A stretch of DNA of 64,000 bases from Picocystis sp. L7 (Eukaryota; Chlorophyta; Picocystophyceae; Picocystales; Picocystaceae): NCBI GenBank assembly GCA_020975725.1, contig QXJR01000008.1, positions 620,001-684,000 on the forward strand, written 5' to 3'. The position numbers and the translations under genes were made by a program. The notes beneath the pieces were generated by a model that was not told the origin of the DNA, searched no databases, and worked only from the letters and a program-made list of their open reading frames with translations. This document shows positions 10,511 through 18,354 of this stretch, one piece after another (positions within the stretch are counted from its first letter, which is position 1; each line of letters begins with the position of its first letter).

Positions 10511-10515
10511 AGGAC

Positions 10516-11270
10516 TGTTGCACAGGGCAGGATCCCCCCTACGATGGGACCCGGTGCTTGACAAGGATCCTTGTCAAGCAGTAGCTTAGATAAGCGAGCT
10601 TGGAGCTTGCTGTGAATCGCTGGATATCAAGTTAGGTACAGGACGGGCAACCCCTCCCCAACTGGACGAGTACGGTTCAGGACCTGGGAAGACGGGGGAT
10701 GGGAAGCCCTTGGTACCCCGGTCCGAGGGTACAAGGGATCTCCCCAATACCAGCCGTCCGGATAGACCCAGGGCGAACCCGATGAAGCCCAGGCTCAGTT
10801 CGGGGCAACCCTAGGAGACTCGGGCAGAAGGGGGGACCGGATCCCCCCGAATCTCCCGAGGTCGATCGAAGGGTGGGGAAGCACCCTGGGGATCTGGGTC
10901 ACGTGCTTGCCTGTCGTGCAACCGTCCGATGAGGGCGACAGGGCCACGTGACCACCAGGCGCCCCATGGAGATAAGGGTACCATCCTGAACCGCTGCTGG
11001 TTTGAGGGCCTACTAGAGGCCCCCCTCACTTGACTTGAAAATAGACTTTTGCCTTGACGACTTCTCAAGTGCGTGCCTCCACCAACCACGAGCTTGCTGC
11101 GGCTTCTCAACACCGCCAAGACTCGCACAAGTCAGCAGGAGCCGTCCCACACGGCTGACGCTCCACAAACGCGCCCTTCAAGGCATTTCCATCCTCTTCC
11201 CTTGGCATCTTGGCCGCCTTGAGGCCCAAACGTGTGTGAATTGGCAGTGTCTCCACGGACGCTGTGCAAT
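10516..11270 (+). repeat. 5' LTR (755 bp)
   Basis: Begins TGTTGCACAG and ends CTGTGCAAT; the inner TTGCACAG/CTGTGCAA forms an 8-bp terminal inverted repeat. Offset to the 3' copy is exactly 7,079 bp. The terminal dinucleotides read TG..AT rather than TG..CA if the AGGAC duplication is taken as the boundary. Confidence 0.92.
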
Positions 11271-11312
11271 ACTGTCGAAGCTGAAGCTCAACGACGCTAG
11301 GAAGCCTGAGGG

Positions 11313-12581
11313 ATGTCGTCCTTGGACGAAGAAGGGCGCGAAGAAAGATGGGAAGCCCTCGAGCGGAACCTCGAGGAGGAAAGGTCTCGGAGGGAGGGAC
11401 TTGAAGAAAAGTTGGCGGAGCTCCAGGAGCTCTTACAAGCCAAACAAGCTTCCCCACCTGATGATTTGAAGACAGCAACTGATGGGCTTACGCTCCCGGA
11501 AGTAAAGGGCAAGCCATCGGCGTCGGAAGAACAGCCCGTACCATCCCACACACCGTTGGAAGAAGAGGGGCTGCCTCGTCTTACGAGCCTCTACGGTTCC
11601 GCGCTCCAGGACTCCAAGAATTTGCAGAAAGTGTCGCTCGAACGACCAGAAAAGTTCTCCGGGACAGAACTCGAAGACAACCCATACGCGCTGTCCTACT
11701 GGTACCGCGATGTGTTGTGTTGGTGTCAAGCATATGCCTACGATCGCCCCATGGAACAACTGGTTCTAGCGATCAACCAAACACTGGCGGGTACGGCAAA
11801 GGCCATGGTCCAGAACTTGATCATGCGCGATGCCAACTCGCTACGATCAGTGGATGACCTTTTTGCGTACCTCAAGCGGACTTTCCAGAGTCATGACCCT
11901 GGACCGGAAGCGTGGCGAGAGTTCCACACTACCCGGATGCGCCGAGCAGAGAATGCAATACAGTTTCTCAATAGGCTGGTCCAGTTGAGCTTTGTAGTCA
12001 ATGCAAGCTATTCGCCGCTCTGCCGTACGCTGACTGAAGATGACATCGCGGCCAGGCTACAACATGGCCTACCCAGCTCCCTCCAACGAGCTTTGTACAA
12101 GCACCTGAATCACCTTATTGAGGTTGACAAGGTTCCAGATATGCAACCTGGAAGTTTGGCTGCTGTGATATTCAAGCTGGAACGCGATATGCATGAGCAG
12201 AATGGCAGGGAAACCAAGGATGCTGCTGGCAAGTGGATTAGCCGCAAGCCGTCTTCACGCACGGCTCATGGCACCCAGCATGCTGGCCCAACACCCACAG
12301 GTGGAGTGGCAGCTGCCCTACCGGCTCAGCCTCCCACTTTGTCAAAGGAAATGGCAGCAGCGAAGCGGCAGCGAAAACGCTTTGACGATCTCTCGGATGA
12401 ACAGAAGCAGTCCATTACAAAAGCTCAGCAACAGCTCGGAGGCAAGGCACTGGGAGCAAAGCTTACCCAAGAGGAGCAGAACTTATGCTTAGCTCATTCC
12501 CTGTGCCAACGATGCCGCCGTTACGGACATGACCAGTCCGGCTGCAAAATGGCATCCGTAATGGGAGCACCAAAAAACTGA
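11313..12581 (+). mobile_element. Retrotransposon gag
   Basis: A ~420-residue gag-type reading frame. A charged coiled N-terminus (Glu/Arg/Leu-rich, residues ~10-50) precedes a retrotransposon gag core (DNPYALSYWYRDVLCWCQAY, WREFHTTRMRRAENAIQFLN). The C-terminal part holds a CCHC zinc knuckle (CQRCRRYGHDQSGC). It would pack element RNA in a virus-like particle. Part of the Ty3/gypsy element. Confidence 0.85.
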
Positions 12582-15500
12582 TGGCTCTCCGTCCCGATAC
12601 TTCGGTCAGCGGGACGGAGCCGGGAGCGCAACAGGCAGCCGCCCCGGTTACCAAGCTGAAGGAATGCATCAACCTGAATTCTGTTGCTAGCAACAGACCT
12701 AGGGGAGAGTTCCTTGCTGCTGAAACATACTTTGGAAAAAAATCACAAAAAATTAGGACTCAAGCTTATTTGGACACCCTGGCCAGCTACTCATTCATCA
12801 GCGAGCGCTTGTACGATAGTTTGCGACAGGCCGACCCAGAAGGGGTGTCATGGGAGTGCACAACAGCGTCCTACGATTACAGCGTGGCTGTAGGCCAGAA
12901 GGTCCACACTGCCCCAGTAATCAGGGCTGCATTCTCAATCGACGGGTTCCGAACTCGCATCGAGTTCGGAGTGGCTCCGTTAGAAACCTTTGACTGCATA
13001 TTGGGGGCAAACTTTTGCCACCAGTACCTGGAGGCCTTGGACTGGCCCCAACATCGGATGATCCTGCGCGATAGCAACAGCACAAAACATACTGTCTACG
13101 GCGATCAGCAGTTCATCGCTTCTCGCAAACTGGACCTGATTGTGCCTCGAAGCGAGGCCCGACAAGCAGTCAAACATCCTGGTTGTCTATTGCTGATGAT
13201 GCAACCACTGGATGCAAGCAAAGAACTAGTTGAGGAAGAGACAGACTTGACCCACATGCGAAGTCAAGTCAGCGATGAATGTCCGTTGGACGAAACAGAC
13301 CAGGCACGTCTGGACGATCTCCTGAATGTACGCTACAAGCATTTGTTTGAACCACGTGTCGAACCGCCACCGGAGCGAGTACCCGGAGAAGCCTTTAAAA
13401 TACAGCTGGTAGAGGGGGCGACCCCGCAGTACAGGAACTACTACAGGTTGTCTCCACATCAACAGGCAGCCCTGAAGGAGCTGATTGCTGAATATGTGGA
13501 CGCCGGAAAGATGAATCTGTGTGCAGGGTCCAGTTGGGGGAGCTCCTGTCATTCTGGTACCGAAGAAAGACGGTGGCTGGAGGGTAGTATTCGACTACCG
13601 TTTGCTAAACAGCGTCACGGTTAAGGATAGATACCCTCTGCCCCGTATTGATGATTACTTGCAGAGCCTGCGCGGAGCAAAGTATTTTTCCTCTTTGGAT
13701 GCGTTGGACGGGTTTCACCAGATTCGCGTGGACCCAGCGGACATCGACAAAACTGCTGTGGTAACTCCATTCGGATCGTACGTATGGAAAGTCATGCCCA
13801 TGGGAGCAGCCAACGCCCCGGCAATGTTCCAGCGCATGATGAACAGAGTATTCGGACACCTCCTATTTCTGAAGGTGTACATGGACGATATCCTCGTTCA
13901 CTCGGAAACAAAACAGGAACACTTCCAACACCTGGAAGAGTTCTTTGCAACATGTGAACAAGCCGATATCCGCCTCAAACGATCGAAATGCCACTTCTTC
14001 AGAAGCACTTTGGAATGGGTTGGCTTTCGCATTCGCGACGGTCAGTTGGCTTGTACAGCCCACCTGGTGTCTAAGATCCAGCACTTTGCACGCCCGCAGA
14101 CCCAGCGAGAAAACATGGCCTTTCTGGGGCTGTGCCAGTTTTACATGCGCTTTGTGCCCCATTATGCTGAGCTCGCTGCACCGCTTACTGAATTAAATCA
14201 AGCATCGCTGAAGCATGCCTTCACTTCATACTGGAAACAGCCCCAAGAAGAAGCTTTCCGTAACATGGTCAAAGCTCTCACGTCCGCACCAGTTTTGGCT
14301 CTTTTCGATGAAGATCGATCCATTCGCATCGAAACAGACGCCTCCGACATAGGCATGGGTGCTGCCCTCATGCAACAGGCTTGCAATGGTGATTGGCGCC
14401 CCGTAGAATACTGGTCGAAGAAATTCAACACCGCTCAGCAGAATTATCACCCTGCTGAGAAGGAGACGTGCGCCATACTGTACGCACTGCAGCACTGGCG
14501 GCATCTCCTCTTTGGTCAGCAGTTTACCGTGCTAACGGACAACAAAGCCAGCCAGTTCTTGGGTAGCAAAGCTACCGAACAGCTATCGCCACGAGAAATG
14601 CGCTGGATCGAAAAGCTTGCGTACTTTGCACCCTTTACGGTTGAATACAGGCCTGGATCAGAAAACATCGGCCCGGACTATTTGTCACGGCACTCCGCAA
14701 AAGTGAAGGATGCAAACACCCTTTGTATCCTCGATCTCTGTGCTGGCATGGGAACCACACTGCGGGCATTGGAGCTGATCATTCCTACCACATCCGACGT
14801 GGTACTGGATTACATTGCAGTTGAATCCGATCCGGACTGTCGTAGCGTAATATCCCGCGTGTTCCACCAGGTTCGCCTTTCCAGGCCCGGCCTGTTTACC
14901 AGGAAGGATATTTTCCGCTATGGCAATGACGTCACAACTCTGGTGCACAGAAGAAAACTGCCTCAAGTGCATCTCATGGTCGCTGGCGTGCCGTGTCAGC
15001 CCTTCTCCAGGGCCAACACCAATGCATCAAAACCTTCATTGGGTCTGTACGACACGCGCGAACTCTTTACAGCCGTGGCCCAACTACACAACAAGCTGGG
15101 GCATCCAGATTATGTGCTGGAATGCACCCCCTTTGCTGCTCACCTACAACCTCATCTGGAACAGATCACCGATTGGTTTGGTGAGCCAATACTGGAAGAC
15201 ATGTCCCACTACAGTGCCCAAGCGCGCACACGATTGTGCTGGACTTCTTTCCCAAGTCAACGAGGAAATGCGCTGGACCTCGCCCCGCTTCCCGTTACTT
15301 GGCAAGACTGCCTGGATGATGGGGCGCGAGTACCCCTGGACGCAATACATCAGCCCCGCACCAAATGCCCAACGCTGATGGCTAGCGCACGGTCCCACAG
15401 CGACCGACTGCGCTCTACCTGGGTACGCGGAACCGACGGGAAACCACGCCCGCTGTCTACCGGCGAACGTGAACGTCTCGTTGGCATGCAGACTGGTGAC

Positions 15501-17567
15501 ACTGCTGCAAAGAATGTCAGTGATGCCGGTCGACGACGTATGTGCGGCAACGCCTTCCCTGTGGGATGGATTGCTCACATGCTGTCTCAATGGCTGAACC
15601 ACACACGGACGCTTCGACCGCTAGCTAGCCGCAGTCCTGCTGGGACTGTGTGTGGCTCTATCGCGTCTATCACAACTCCACAGCCAACGCAGTCCTCACT
15701 ACATTCTACTTCAGTTGACTCGCCCTCCATCCTGGAGCGTATTCGCCATGCTGCCCAAGCTGATTCCACGTACCAGGACATCTTACAACAGCCACCTGCA
15801 GGGTACAAGGTCCAAGACTCACTCTTGTTTGCCCCAACAGAGAACAAACAATGGTCATTGGTTATACCGGCAGATAACTCTGTGAGGCAGGAATTGCTGC
15901 ACATGATCCATGACCCACGACACTTTGGCGTGACACGTACACATGCTGACGCTGTTCGTCACTTTACATGGGACAACATGAAATCCCACATTGAACATTT
16001 TGTCGCCCGGTGTCCTGTTTGCCAGCTCCAAAAACCTGGGAATCGTTCACGACATTCTTCGTTATGTCCAGAATTACAATTTCACCCATACCCGCTCCAT
16101 ACGGTAGTAATGGACATGGTCGAGAATCTACCGCTTACAGCTCAGGGTCATAATGCTGTCCTGACGGTTGTCGACCGATTTACAAAGTATGCGATTTATG
16201 TGCCGATCCATTCAACCTGGAGCGCACATCGCCAAGCGCAGCTTCTGATGGATCACCTGGTTTATCGGTATCACACACCGGTACACATCCATACGGACAA
16301 TGGGCCTGCCTATCGTGCGCTGTTCAAAGCATTCTGCGCTGCATTGAACATCCGTCACGTTACAGGTACCCCTTATCACTCTCAGTCACAGGGAGGAGCC
16401 GAGCGTCAGCATCGCACGCTACTCCAAACTTTACGTACAACCTGTACTGATAAACATCAATGGGACGCATACCTTCAGGCAGCAGCGCACGCTTATAATG
16501 ACTCCGTGCATTCAGTAACCAAGCATTCTCCCTTTGCACTGCTTTTTGGATGTTCATCCAGGCTACCTTGGCACTTGCAGCTTCCTACTACAGGTGCTGC
16601 TGCTACAGATCTTACAGTTGACAGCTTCGATACGCGCATATCAGACCTGCTGGACCGCCATCGCAGAGTCTACGAAGCCGTCCTACAGGAACTGGTTCAA
16701 GGCGCTCGTCGCATGCAAACGGCCACTGCGAAGCGACGGATAAAATCCTTCCAACAGGGAGACAAGGTAAAAGTGCAGTATGGACTCAAAGGTCCTACTG
16801 ACAAACACAAATTAGATCCATACTATGTGGGGCCATACACAATCAAGAAAGTTCTACAGAATGGTGCTTATCAATTGGACTTACCACCTGGATCGGCGTT
16901 TTCTGATCGCATTCACGCTGACCGCATTGAACCTTGGGTGGATTCAGACCTCACCTTGTTTCCCATGGATGAACATCTGCAGCCTGCCCGTGCACCGTTG
17001 CCGGATACATTGGATATGCAGACCAATTCTGCAACGTATCGCATCCGCCGTTTTCTGCTGCGCGACTACGCAACCTTTCCCACACAACCGGTGCGGTACT
17101 GGGTCGAAAGCTCCCTGACTGATTCATCGCAACGCTTCTTTTGGATCGACGAAACTGCAGCCTTGCTTGAAGAATTTCTGCCACTGGAGGAAGCCAATGG
17201 ATGCATACCTGAACAGGGAATTACCCCCAGCAACTACAATGCTGTGTTCACACACAAGAAGACAGCTTACCTTCAATCACCCAGTCCCATCATGGTCAAC
17301 ACCTGGACCTTCACCAAATTGCCGTTCCAGACTCGGCGCCGCCCAAGATTTATCGTACCCACCGAGTTGGCAGGACAGGTGGTTCAGGAACTCTTTCATA
17401 CACCCGATCAATCGGATCCAGCCTACTTCCAAGGCTTGGTTGACAGCATTGACGACAGGCTGCACAAAATCATATGGACTGACGGTAAGATTGACTACTA
17501 CCTGGGAGAACAAGTACGAGCCATGGTCTATGACCCCGTGGCATACGTATATGACTTCCAACTGTGA
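12581..17567 (+). mobile_element. Retrotransposon pol region (PR-RT-RH-MTase-IN)
   Basis: Approximate parts: aspartic protease around 12.76-13.05 kb (LDTLASYSFIS); reverse transcriptase around 13.4-14.2 kb (FSSLDALDGFHQIRV, YMDDILVHS); RNase H around 14.3-14.7 kb (ETDASDIGMGAALMQQ); DNA methyltransferase 14.72-15.6 kb; integrase around 15.9-16.8 kb with a zinc-binding HHCC head (CPVCQLQKPG) and the D,D,E core (HTDNGPAYRALF, QGGAERQHRTL). A further ~250 residues at the end match nothing I recognise. The region uses more than one frame. Treated as part of a young but possibly defective element. Confidence 0.88.
14721..15600 (+). other. Cytosine-5 DNA methyltransferase domain inside pol
   Basis: About 290 residues between RNase H and integrase carry the ordered C5-methyltransferase motifs. 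Motif I is ILDLCAGMGTTLRALELI (AdoMet binding). Motif IV is GVPCQPFSRA (14,985-15,014), with the catalytic Cys. Motif VI is represented by LECTPF, keeping Glu but lacking the usual Asn-Val. Motif VIII is QARTRLCW, and motif X is CGNAFPVGW. Transfer of a methyl group to cytosine in DNA is the family activity. The PCQPFS form resembles bacterial and DNMT1-type rather than DNMT3-type enzymes. Retrotransposon-borne cytosine methyltransferases are known from a few algal and dinoflagellate lineages. Confidence 0.88.
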
Positions 17568-17594: not shown

Positions 17595-18349
17595 TGTTGC
17601 ACAGGGCAGGATCCCCCCTACGATGGGACCCGGTGCTTGACAAGGATCCTTGTCAAGCAGTAGCTTAGATAAGCGAGCTTGGAGCTTGCTGTGAATCGCT
17701 GGATATCAAGTTAGGTACAGGACGGGCAACCCCTCCCCAACTGGACGAGTACGGTTCAGGACCTGGGAAGACGGGGGATGGGAAGCCCTTGGTACCCCGG
17801 TCCGAGGGTACAAGGGATCTCCCCAATACCAGCCGTCCGGATAGACCCAGGGCGAACCCGATGAAGCCCAGGCTCAGTTCGGGGCAACCCTAGGAGACTC
17901 GGGCAGAAGGGGGGACCGGATCCCCCCGAATCTCCCGAGGTCGATCGAAGGGTGGGGAAGCACCCTGGGGATCTGGGTCACGTGCTTGCCTGTCGTGCAA
18001 CCGTCCGATGAGGGCGACAGGGCCACGTGACCACCAGGCGCCCCATGGAGATAAGGGTACCATCCTGAACCGCTGCTGGTTTGAGGGCCTACTAGAGGCC
18101 CCCCTCACTTGACTTGAAAATAGACTTTTGCCTTGACGACTTCTCAAGTGCGTGCCTCCACCAACCACGAGCTTGCTGCGGCTTCTCAACACCGCCAAGA
18201 CTCGCACAAGTCAGCAGGAGCCGTCCCACACGGCTGACGCTCCACAAACGCGCCCTTCAAGGCATTTCCATCCTCTTCCCTTGGCATCTTGGCCGCCTTG
18301 AGGCCCAAACGTGTGTGAATTGGCAGTGTCTCCACGGACGCTGTGCAAT
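17595..18349 (+). repeat. 3' LTR (755 bp)
   Basis: Matches the 5' LTR base for base in every line I compared. It is preceded by the purine-rich GGGAACCGGGAGAG, a likely polypurine tract for plus-strand priming. It is followed directly by the AGGAC target duplication. Confidence 0.92.
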
Positions 18350-18354
18350 AGGAC

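What the first reader, a model, noticed from the sequence alone, without database searches (positions are those of the whole stretch)
14721..15600. Cytosine-5 DNA methyltransferase captured inside a gypsy pol, between RNase H and integrase
The motifs read in order I, IV (PCQPFS), VI-like, VIII (QARTRL) and X (GNAFPV) within a pol frame whose flanking domains are normal for Ty3/gypsy. A retrotransposon carrying its own DNA methyltransferase could methylate its cDNA or target sites, to escape host sensing, mark copies, or couple integration to methylation. Retrotransposon-borne cytosine methyltransferases are established in a few algal and dinoflagellate lineages. The site within pol, the PCQPFS rather than DNMT3-type motif, and the changed ENV motif may make this a separate capture.
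Basis: partly seen in the sequence, partly recalled or inferred. Interest (0 to 1): 0.88.

Follow-up and report, generated by a model that had tools for sequence, protein, structure and literature searches.

The report
Retrotransposon carrying its own DNA methyltransferase
In what looks like a small green alga, a large old family of jumping genes carries an apparently intact DNA-methylating enzyme inside the protein that copies and inserts them, so these parasites may put the host's silencing mark on their own DNA.

The parts
10512..10515 (.). left copy of target-site duplication GGAC (AGGAC if the LTR ends one base earlier)
10516..11271 (+). 5' LTR, 756 bp, TGTTGCACAG...CTGTGCAATA
   Evidence: no mismatch to the 3' LTR
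11313..12581 (+). gag-like ORF, 422 aa (no Pfam family over cut-off)
   Evidence: position in the element
12572..12578 (+). A AAA AAC heptamer in the gag frame just before the gag stop; candidate -1 frameshift signal, followed by TGATG stop-start overlap
   Evidence: function inferred
12581..13624 (+). protease ORF (weak aspartyl protease matches), out of frame with pol in this copy
   Evidence: several sibling copies have one open frame of 1677 aa
13521..17567 (+). pol ORF of this copy, 1348 aa
13557..14033 (+). reverse transcriptase PF00078
   Evidence: E 3.8e-37
14310..14627 (+). RNase H PF17917
   Evidence: E 1.2e-32
14718..15632 (+). DNMT3-like cytosine-5 DNA methyltransferase domain, 305 aa
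14991..15008 (+). motif IV PCQPFS, catalytic Cys
   Evidence: invariant in 24 of 24; position checked
15120..15137 (+). motif VI ECTPFA (ENV Glu kept, Asn replaced by Cys)
   Evidence: Glu in 23 of 24, Cys in 24 of 24
15219..15233 (+). motif VIII QARTR (QxRxR)
   Evidence: Q, R, R invariant in 24 of 24
15546..15563 (+). motif X GNAFPV
   Evidence: G, N and P invariant in 24 of 24
15873..16037 (+). integrase H2C2 zinc finger PF17921
   Evidence: E 1.3e-14
16092..16382 (+). integrase core PF00665
   Evidence: E 3.9e-12
17595..18350 (+). 3' LTR, 756 bp
18351..18354 (.). right copy of target-site duplication GGAC

Best explanation
This is one recent copy of an old Ty3/gypsy lineage that gained a DNMT3-like cytosine-5 DNA methyltransferase once, between RNase H and integrase of Pol, and has kept it as a regular, selected domain. 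Being part of Pol, the enzyme should be packaged with reverse transcriptase and integrase and meet the element's double-stranded cDNA before insertion. The most likely role is de novo methylation of that cDNA, perhaps at CG, so that new copies arrive already bearing the host's mark, as protection or camouflage. Shown here: identity, place, intact motifs, predicted fold, copy number, shared ancestry, purifying selection. Inferred: catalytic activity, substrate, timing and benefit.
For: PF00145 over cut-off. DNMT3A/3B best among solved structures by profile and by fold (model pLDDT 87.8). PCQ, QxRxR, GN..P invariant in 24 of 24. 132 window-type places, 117 of them without an in-frame stop by my count of the table; 103 of 109 RT-RNaseH copies followed by the domain: by my count, 81 of 81 stop-free copies and 22 of 28 with stops. 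MTase-after-RNase-H elements plus L066 are one clade, 98/89 with 43 rows, 100/99 with 35 rows. Median dN/dS 0.097 over the 25 of 435 pairs usable in all three regions. LTRs identical. The genome has other DNMT genes: BAH-type, chromodomain-type, PWWP-type and DRM-type, so 5mC probably means something in this cell. Precedent: SymbioDIRS-Dnmt3 domains methylate CG de novo in yeast (PMC5890265, section 10 read in full).
Against: No activity data. KnitGypsy-Dnmt3, the closest described case, showed no methylation in yeast; the authors call it inconclusive. CpG o/e of the element (0.784) lies inside the range of 82 overlapping 7.8-kb stretches of the rest of the window (minimum 0.737), and seven host genes show a codon-corrected CpG ratio of 0.67-1.07, as the elements do. 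Among transitions between the window copy and seven near copies (23 or more transitions each), 22-33% lie at CpG where 22.5% is expected; none of the excesses reaches p 0.05. Motif VI Asn is replaced by Cys. dN/dS is higher than for RT-RNaseH (0.018) and integrase (0.047). The L066 family has spread without an intact enzyme at that place.
Confidence: 0.5

Rival explanations
1. The domain works mainly as a DNA-binding or structural module next to integrase (handling cDNA or target), and methylation is secondary or lost.
For: It sits between RNase H and integrase; 122 of 150 H2C2 places have it upstream. The L066 family keeps a segment of about 190 aa at the same junction with no catalytic motifs, and 26 full-length matches are 90-100% alike, so something there may be useful without catalysis.
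Against: Catalytic Cys, QxRxR and GN..P are invariant in 24 of 24 copies, down to 32% identity to the window, which a pure binding module would not need.
Confidence: 0.2
2. The enzyme acts in trans on the host genome or on sibling copies, reshaping host methylation or limiting new insertions, rather than on its own cDNA.
For: High copy number (155 places) and a host with its own BAH- and chromodomain-type DNMTs could propagate marks; PMC5890265 suggests such effects for Symbiodinium (parts 1-2 of 7 of its text read).
Against: No methylome is available here; CpG composition of the elements is not distinguishable from seven host genes.
Confidence: 0.15
3. A passenger: captured by chance, spread with successful elements, no benefit.
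For: Elements without an intact domain exist: 28 of 150 H2C2 places lack an MTase match upstream, 20 of them of the L066 family, the other 8 not examined.
Against: dN/dS about 0.10 across subfamilies and retention in clades only 32-36% alike to the window in this domain do not fit neutral drift.
Confidence: 0.07
4. An RNA methyltransferase acting on genomic RNA or its tRNA primer, as DNMT2 acts on tRNA (recalled).
For: RNA is the first nucleic acid in the particle; the DNMT2 precedent shows that the fold can act on RNA.
Against: Closest fold and profile are the DNA enzymes DNMT3A/3B; DNMT2 comes far lower in the profile search (E 1.2e-4 against 1.4e-10).
Confidence: 0.08

Closest known systems
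KnitGypsy-Dnmt3 of Klebsormidium nitens (de Mendoza et al. 2018, PMC5890265; passages read, Fig. 4c not held)
   Same: LTR gypsy element with a Dnmt3-type C5-methyltransferase inside the Pol ORF, several copies, purifying selection, unrearranged domain.
   Different: Other host, to judge by the compact genome; PCQ motif IV and ECTPFA/ECVPFA motif VI seen here could not be compared; exact place of the domain in Pol and sequence kinship not tested.
SymbioDIRS-Dnmt3 and SymbioLINE-Dnmt of Symbiodinium (PMC5890265)
   Same: Retrotransposon-borne DNMTs in hundreds of copies; SymbioDIRS domains active on CG in yeast.
   Different: Different element classes (DIRS with tyrosine recombinase, LINE); independent captures.
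DNMT3A/DNMT3B catalytic domain
   Same: Best profile and fold match among solved structures, linear motif order, QDCL/QECL stretch.
   Different: PCQ instead of PCN in motif IV, ECT/ECV instead of ENV in motif VI; 22-24% identity over the aligned fold.
Host DRM-type DNMT (L064, C20)
   Same: DNMT3-clade enzyme with PCQ in motif IV in the same genome.
   Different: Rearranged motif order; the retrotransposon domain is linear, so it is not a simple copy of this gene.
PHROG 116, phage DNA methyltransferases
   Same: Sequence match E 3e-20 to the window domain, 4.2e-18 to L005.
   Different: Cellular and phage enzymes are not embedded in a Pol; not pursued further.

Membership tests
Ty3/gypsy LTR retrotransposon | paired LTRs with target-site duplication | tested here: met
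   756-bp identical LTRs, GGAC/AGGAC duplication
Ty3/gypsy LTR retrotransposon | RT and RNase H upstream of integrase in one Pol | tested here: met
Ty3/gypsy LTR retrotransposon | aspartyl protease upstream of RT | tested here: inconclusive
   PF13650 E 0.027 and PF13975 E 0.042, below cut-off
Ty3/gypsy LTR retrotransposon | RT placed in the gypsy branch against copia and BEL | not tested
   trees held only rows found by similarity to this element
C5-cytosine DNA methyltransferase | PF00145 over curated cut-off | tested here: met
   30.6 bits against 22; matched by 24 of 24 members at E up to 1
C5-cytosine DNA methyltransferase | catalytic Pro-Cys of motif IV and Glu of motif VI | tested here: met
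   PC 24 of 24, Glu 23 of 24; the Asn of ENV is Cys in 24 of 24
C5-cytosine DNA methyltransferase | complete methyltransferase fold | tested here: met
C5-cytosine DNA methyltransferase | catalytic activity on DNA | not testable with these tools
   needs expression and methylation assay
DNMT3 subgroup | DNMT3 the best match among solved structures | tested here: met
DNMT3 subgroup | PCN motif IV as in DNMT3A | tested here: not met
   PCQ in 24 of 24, PCN in the DNMT3A chain; therefore filed as DNMT3-like, not as DNMT3
DNMT3 subgroup | inside the DNMT3 clade in a tree | tested here: inconclusive
   one search had one DNMT3 fragment and one bacterial-type row; these two joined each other (96/89) and the retrotransposon rows stood apart
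KnitGypsy-Dnmt3 lineage | sequence kinship with the Klebsormidium elements | tested here: inconclusive

The most novel reading that the evidence does not exclude
DNA methylation is a built-in replication step of a widespread algal Ty3/gypsy clade: a DNMT3-like enzyme gained once became a near-universal Pol domain, and one daughter family (L066), which has lost the intact enzyme, carries a Dam-type adenine methyltransferase domain near the end of its polyprotein, which may stand in for it.
Probability: 0.25. Interest if true: 0.8.

Novelty: new variant of a known kind. Interest (0 to 1): 0.6.

Why it matters
Transposons normally suffer DNA methylation; these carry the enzyme. With about 150 copies in a 20.5-Mb genome, a member with identical LTRs, and a sister family that lost the intact enzyme, this genome offers a natural comparison to test whether self-methylation of cDNA helps a retrotransposon, a question left open by the 2018 report.

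Tried and rejected
Rejected: chance motif match; one-off insertion; non-methyltransferase Rossmann fold; a simple copy of the host's rearranged DRM gene, because the motif order is linear.

Led nowhere or against the reading: CpG depletion as a sign of self-methylation (a slight, non-significant CpG excess among transitions). A viral donor: 13 IMG/VR loci at 25-38% identity, with ordinary PCQPFS motifs; none has EC[TVA]P[FY] in six frames of the stretches held. A close stand-alone relative: of 22 hits, P0049 (27% identical, a plain methylase) is the only one that does not read as a piece of these elements; I looked at the sequences of 8 of the 22 and judged the others by Pfam labels and profile scores. 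Klebsormidium sequences. Phycobilisome linkers, to test a red-algal host (none). The host's 18S rRNA search failed twice. Foldseek against viral structures was never run (queue busy).

The L066 remnant. The second structure job came back with mean pLDDT 38.4, too low to use; its order of strands and helices resembles the start of the methyltransferase model, but I put no weight on it and did not search with it. The remnant thus rests on a profile score reached by 4 of 2000 shuffles, hhalign P 0.0064 with probability only 5.9%, its place in the polyprotein, and the tree. An unrelated segment at that junction is not excluded; the loss of an intact enzyme in this family does not depend on it.

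Limits: the genome search scores only its best candidates, so counts are lower bounds; the RT list ends at 67% identity. In one search I entered 24 rows picked from 129; a full comparison later gives the same 23 new places, two of which are pieces of one copy. In one search I added five PF00145 places to the methyltransferase list. Of the six RT copies without a match, the one at the end of contig C20 has a PF00145 piece. Searches left out P0060 (short); one search also left out eight long-branch rows (P0028, P0062, P0064, P0067, P0068, P0073, P0074, P0077). The place of P0028 is unsure (end branch 4.46). dN/dS pairs share copies and are not independent; single pairs reach 0.71 (RT-RNaseH) and 0.74 (integrase), while the methyltransferase pairs span 0.07-0.164. 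In one search the RT stretch ran over the frame break of the window copy; one search replaces it.

Not in print: I saw no chlorophyte gypsy-DNMT in the search listings; subscription journals and preprints are not held.
Full report
What is there. The window lies in a 20.5-Mb genome of 30 contigs. TTTAGGG repeats lie at contig ends (15 contigs in the listed part), and the genome has 18 matches to the chlorophyll a/b-binding family, the first of which finds chlorophyll a-b binding proteins as its best solved matches; no phycobilisome linker was found. I infer a small green alga; no call names it. EukProt entries labelled Pavlova lutheri carry related elements, one piece 98% identical to the window (P0040, 47% of the query).

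Element anatomy. LTRs at 10516-11271 and 17595-18350 (756 bp, no mismatch) flanked by GGAC enclose a gag-like ORF, a protease ORF and a pol ORF. The gag stop overlaps the next ATG (TGATG) just after AAAAAAC, a candidate -1 frameshift site. In this copy protease and pol are out of frame near 13.5 kb, while several sibling copies have one frame of 1677 aa, so this copy is probably broken although young.

Distribution. The window domain finds 132 places in its own genome, 49-100% identical; 15 rows show in-frame stops by my count. A search with L005 (33% identical to the window) adds 23, giving 155 places, two of them pieces of one copy. Of 109 RT-RNaseH matches, 103 are followed by the domain at 27-56 nt on the same strand. 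By my count, 81 of 109 have no in-frame stop and all 81 are followed by the domain; the six without it all have stops, and one of these lies at a contig end with a PF00145 piece. Of 150 H2C2 integrase places, 122 have an upstream methyltransferase match; of the 28 others, 20 belong to the L066 family and 8, in frames of 296-698 aa, were not examined. Contigs C3 and C4, with 11.6% of the bases, hold 67 of 155 places. Three protein searches returned 28, 22 and 56 proteins, partly the same; those with the domain come from environmental assemblies or the EukProt entries, and no organism other than the EukProt label is named for them. P0028 aside, hits that show both RNase H and the domain have it after RNase H.

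History. In an RT-RNaseH tree of 43 rows every element with the domain after RNase H falls in one clade, with L066 inside it (98/89); without eight long-branch rows support is 100/99. Forcing L066 outside is rejected (AU p 0.000185). The L066 family has frames up to 2672 aa and 33 matches in the genome, 26 of them full-length and 90-100% identical. At the RNase H-integrase junction it has a segment of 188 aa without PC, QxRxR or GN..P that weakly resembles the N-terminal half of the domain (4 of 2000 shuffles score as well; hhalign P 0.0064 but probability 5.9%); its structure prediction failed (pLDDT 38.4). I read it as a degenerate methyltransferase; only the loss of the intact enzyme is firm. 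The same polyprotein carries a Dam domain (PF05869, 45.3 bits, cut-off 28.1) near its end. One environmental element, P0028, has the same methyltransferase family (profile E 2.6e-47) between protease and RT, and its RT falls just outside the clade on a very long branch, so a second insertion, a move or a transfer of the domain are all open. The methyltransferase tree keeps most of the same small groups but its deep order is not firm.

Selection. Among 30 copies, 25 of 435 pairs had usable dS in all three regions; median dN/dS is 0.097 for the methyltransferase, 0.018 for RT-RNaseH, 0.047 for integrase. It is constrained, but less than its neighbours.

Does it methylate its own DNA? No direct evidence. 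The element's CpG o/e is 0.784, the rest of the window 0.893, but 82 overlapping 7.8-kb stretches reach down to 0.737. With codon usage and protein held fixed, CpG at codon junctions is 0.79 in pol and 0.61 in gag, 0.61-0.98 in ten other methyltransferase-bearing loci, 0.90 in L066, and 0.67-1.07 in seven host genes. The signal is not element-specific. Between the window copy and seven near copies, 22-33% of transitions lie at CpG where 22.5% is expected; the smallest one-sided p is 0.07, and the pairs share one copy.

Host context. The genome has a DNMT with BAH domains (L001), one with a chromodomain (L003; its BAH match is just below cut-off), one with PWWP (L004), a DNMT2-like one by eye (L002) and a DRM-type enzyme (L064; E 7.5e-38 to the DRM chain 4onq and 9e-29 to DRM2). 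PMC12344493 (passages) calls DRM restricted to streptophytes and names PWWP-bearing ChloroDNMTs; PMC9998398 (passages) found no DNMT3 in green-algal MMETSP data.

Comparison and verdict. De Mendoza et al. (PMC5890265; parts 1-2 of 7, section 10 and passages read) described Dnmt3 inside the Pol of a gypsy element of Klebsormidium and DNMTs in Symbiodinium elements, with purifying selection and CG activity for SymbioDIRS domains in yeast; the Klebsormidium domain gave an inconclusive negative. PMC6338049 (passages) proposes an antiviral role for such domains, which I did not test. The present family is a new variant of a known kind: probably another host, fixed ECTPFA/ECVPFA motif, one gain after RNase H with near-universal retention, and a daughter family without the intact enzyme. 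Mechanism: a packaged enzyme methylating cDNA before integration is the best guess, at about 0.5.

Noticed in passing
L066 (G000:C19:154000-163500), minus strand; 33 matches: Gypsy family with frames up to 2672 aa, a possible dead methyltransferase remnant at the RNase H-integrase junction and a Dam-type adenine methyltransferase domain (PF05869, E 9.9e-12) near the end.
   Followed up: partly
P0028 (environmental protein, 1504 aa): Related methyltransferase placed between protease and RT, plus a weak Dam-like match at the N-terminus (E 0.0025, below cut-off).
   Followed up: partly
G000 contigs C3 and C4: 67 of 155 methyltransferase places lie on these two of 30 contigs (11.6% of bases): transposon-rich chromosomes, reminiscent of outlier chromosomes in other picoalgae (recalled).
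   Followed up: no
L064:1137-2342:-: DRM-type rearranged DNMT with PCQ in motif IV in what looks like a chlorophyte, although DRM has been called restricted to streptophytes (PMC12344493, passage); or the host is not a chlorophyte.
   Followed up: partly
P0004, P0025, P0027, P0030, P0032-P0034, P0038, P0040 and others (EukProt, labelled Pavlova lutheri): A dataset labelled as a haptophyte carries many relatives of these elements, one piece 98% identical (P0040), the others listed less so: mislabelled, contaminated, or horizontal transfer.
   Followed up: no
P0019, last 68 residues: Agenet/Tudor-like end of Pol (best E 0.0012, below cut-off), possibly a chromatin-reading tail; the matching end of the window Pol (about 17.36-17.56 kb) gave no match.
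   Followed up: partly
window 12572-12583: AAAAAAC followed by TGATG at the gag end: candidate -1 frameshift or stop-start coupling.
   Followed up: no
8 of 28 H2C2 places without an MTase match (C4:802353, C20:19565, C4:884381, C26:805898, C12:672643, C13:666799, C4:1081157, C3:123458): Integrase pieces that belong neither to the L066 family nor to a copy with a detected methyltransferase: truncated copies or a gypsy family without the domain.
   Followed up: no
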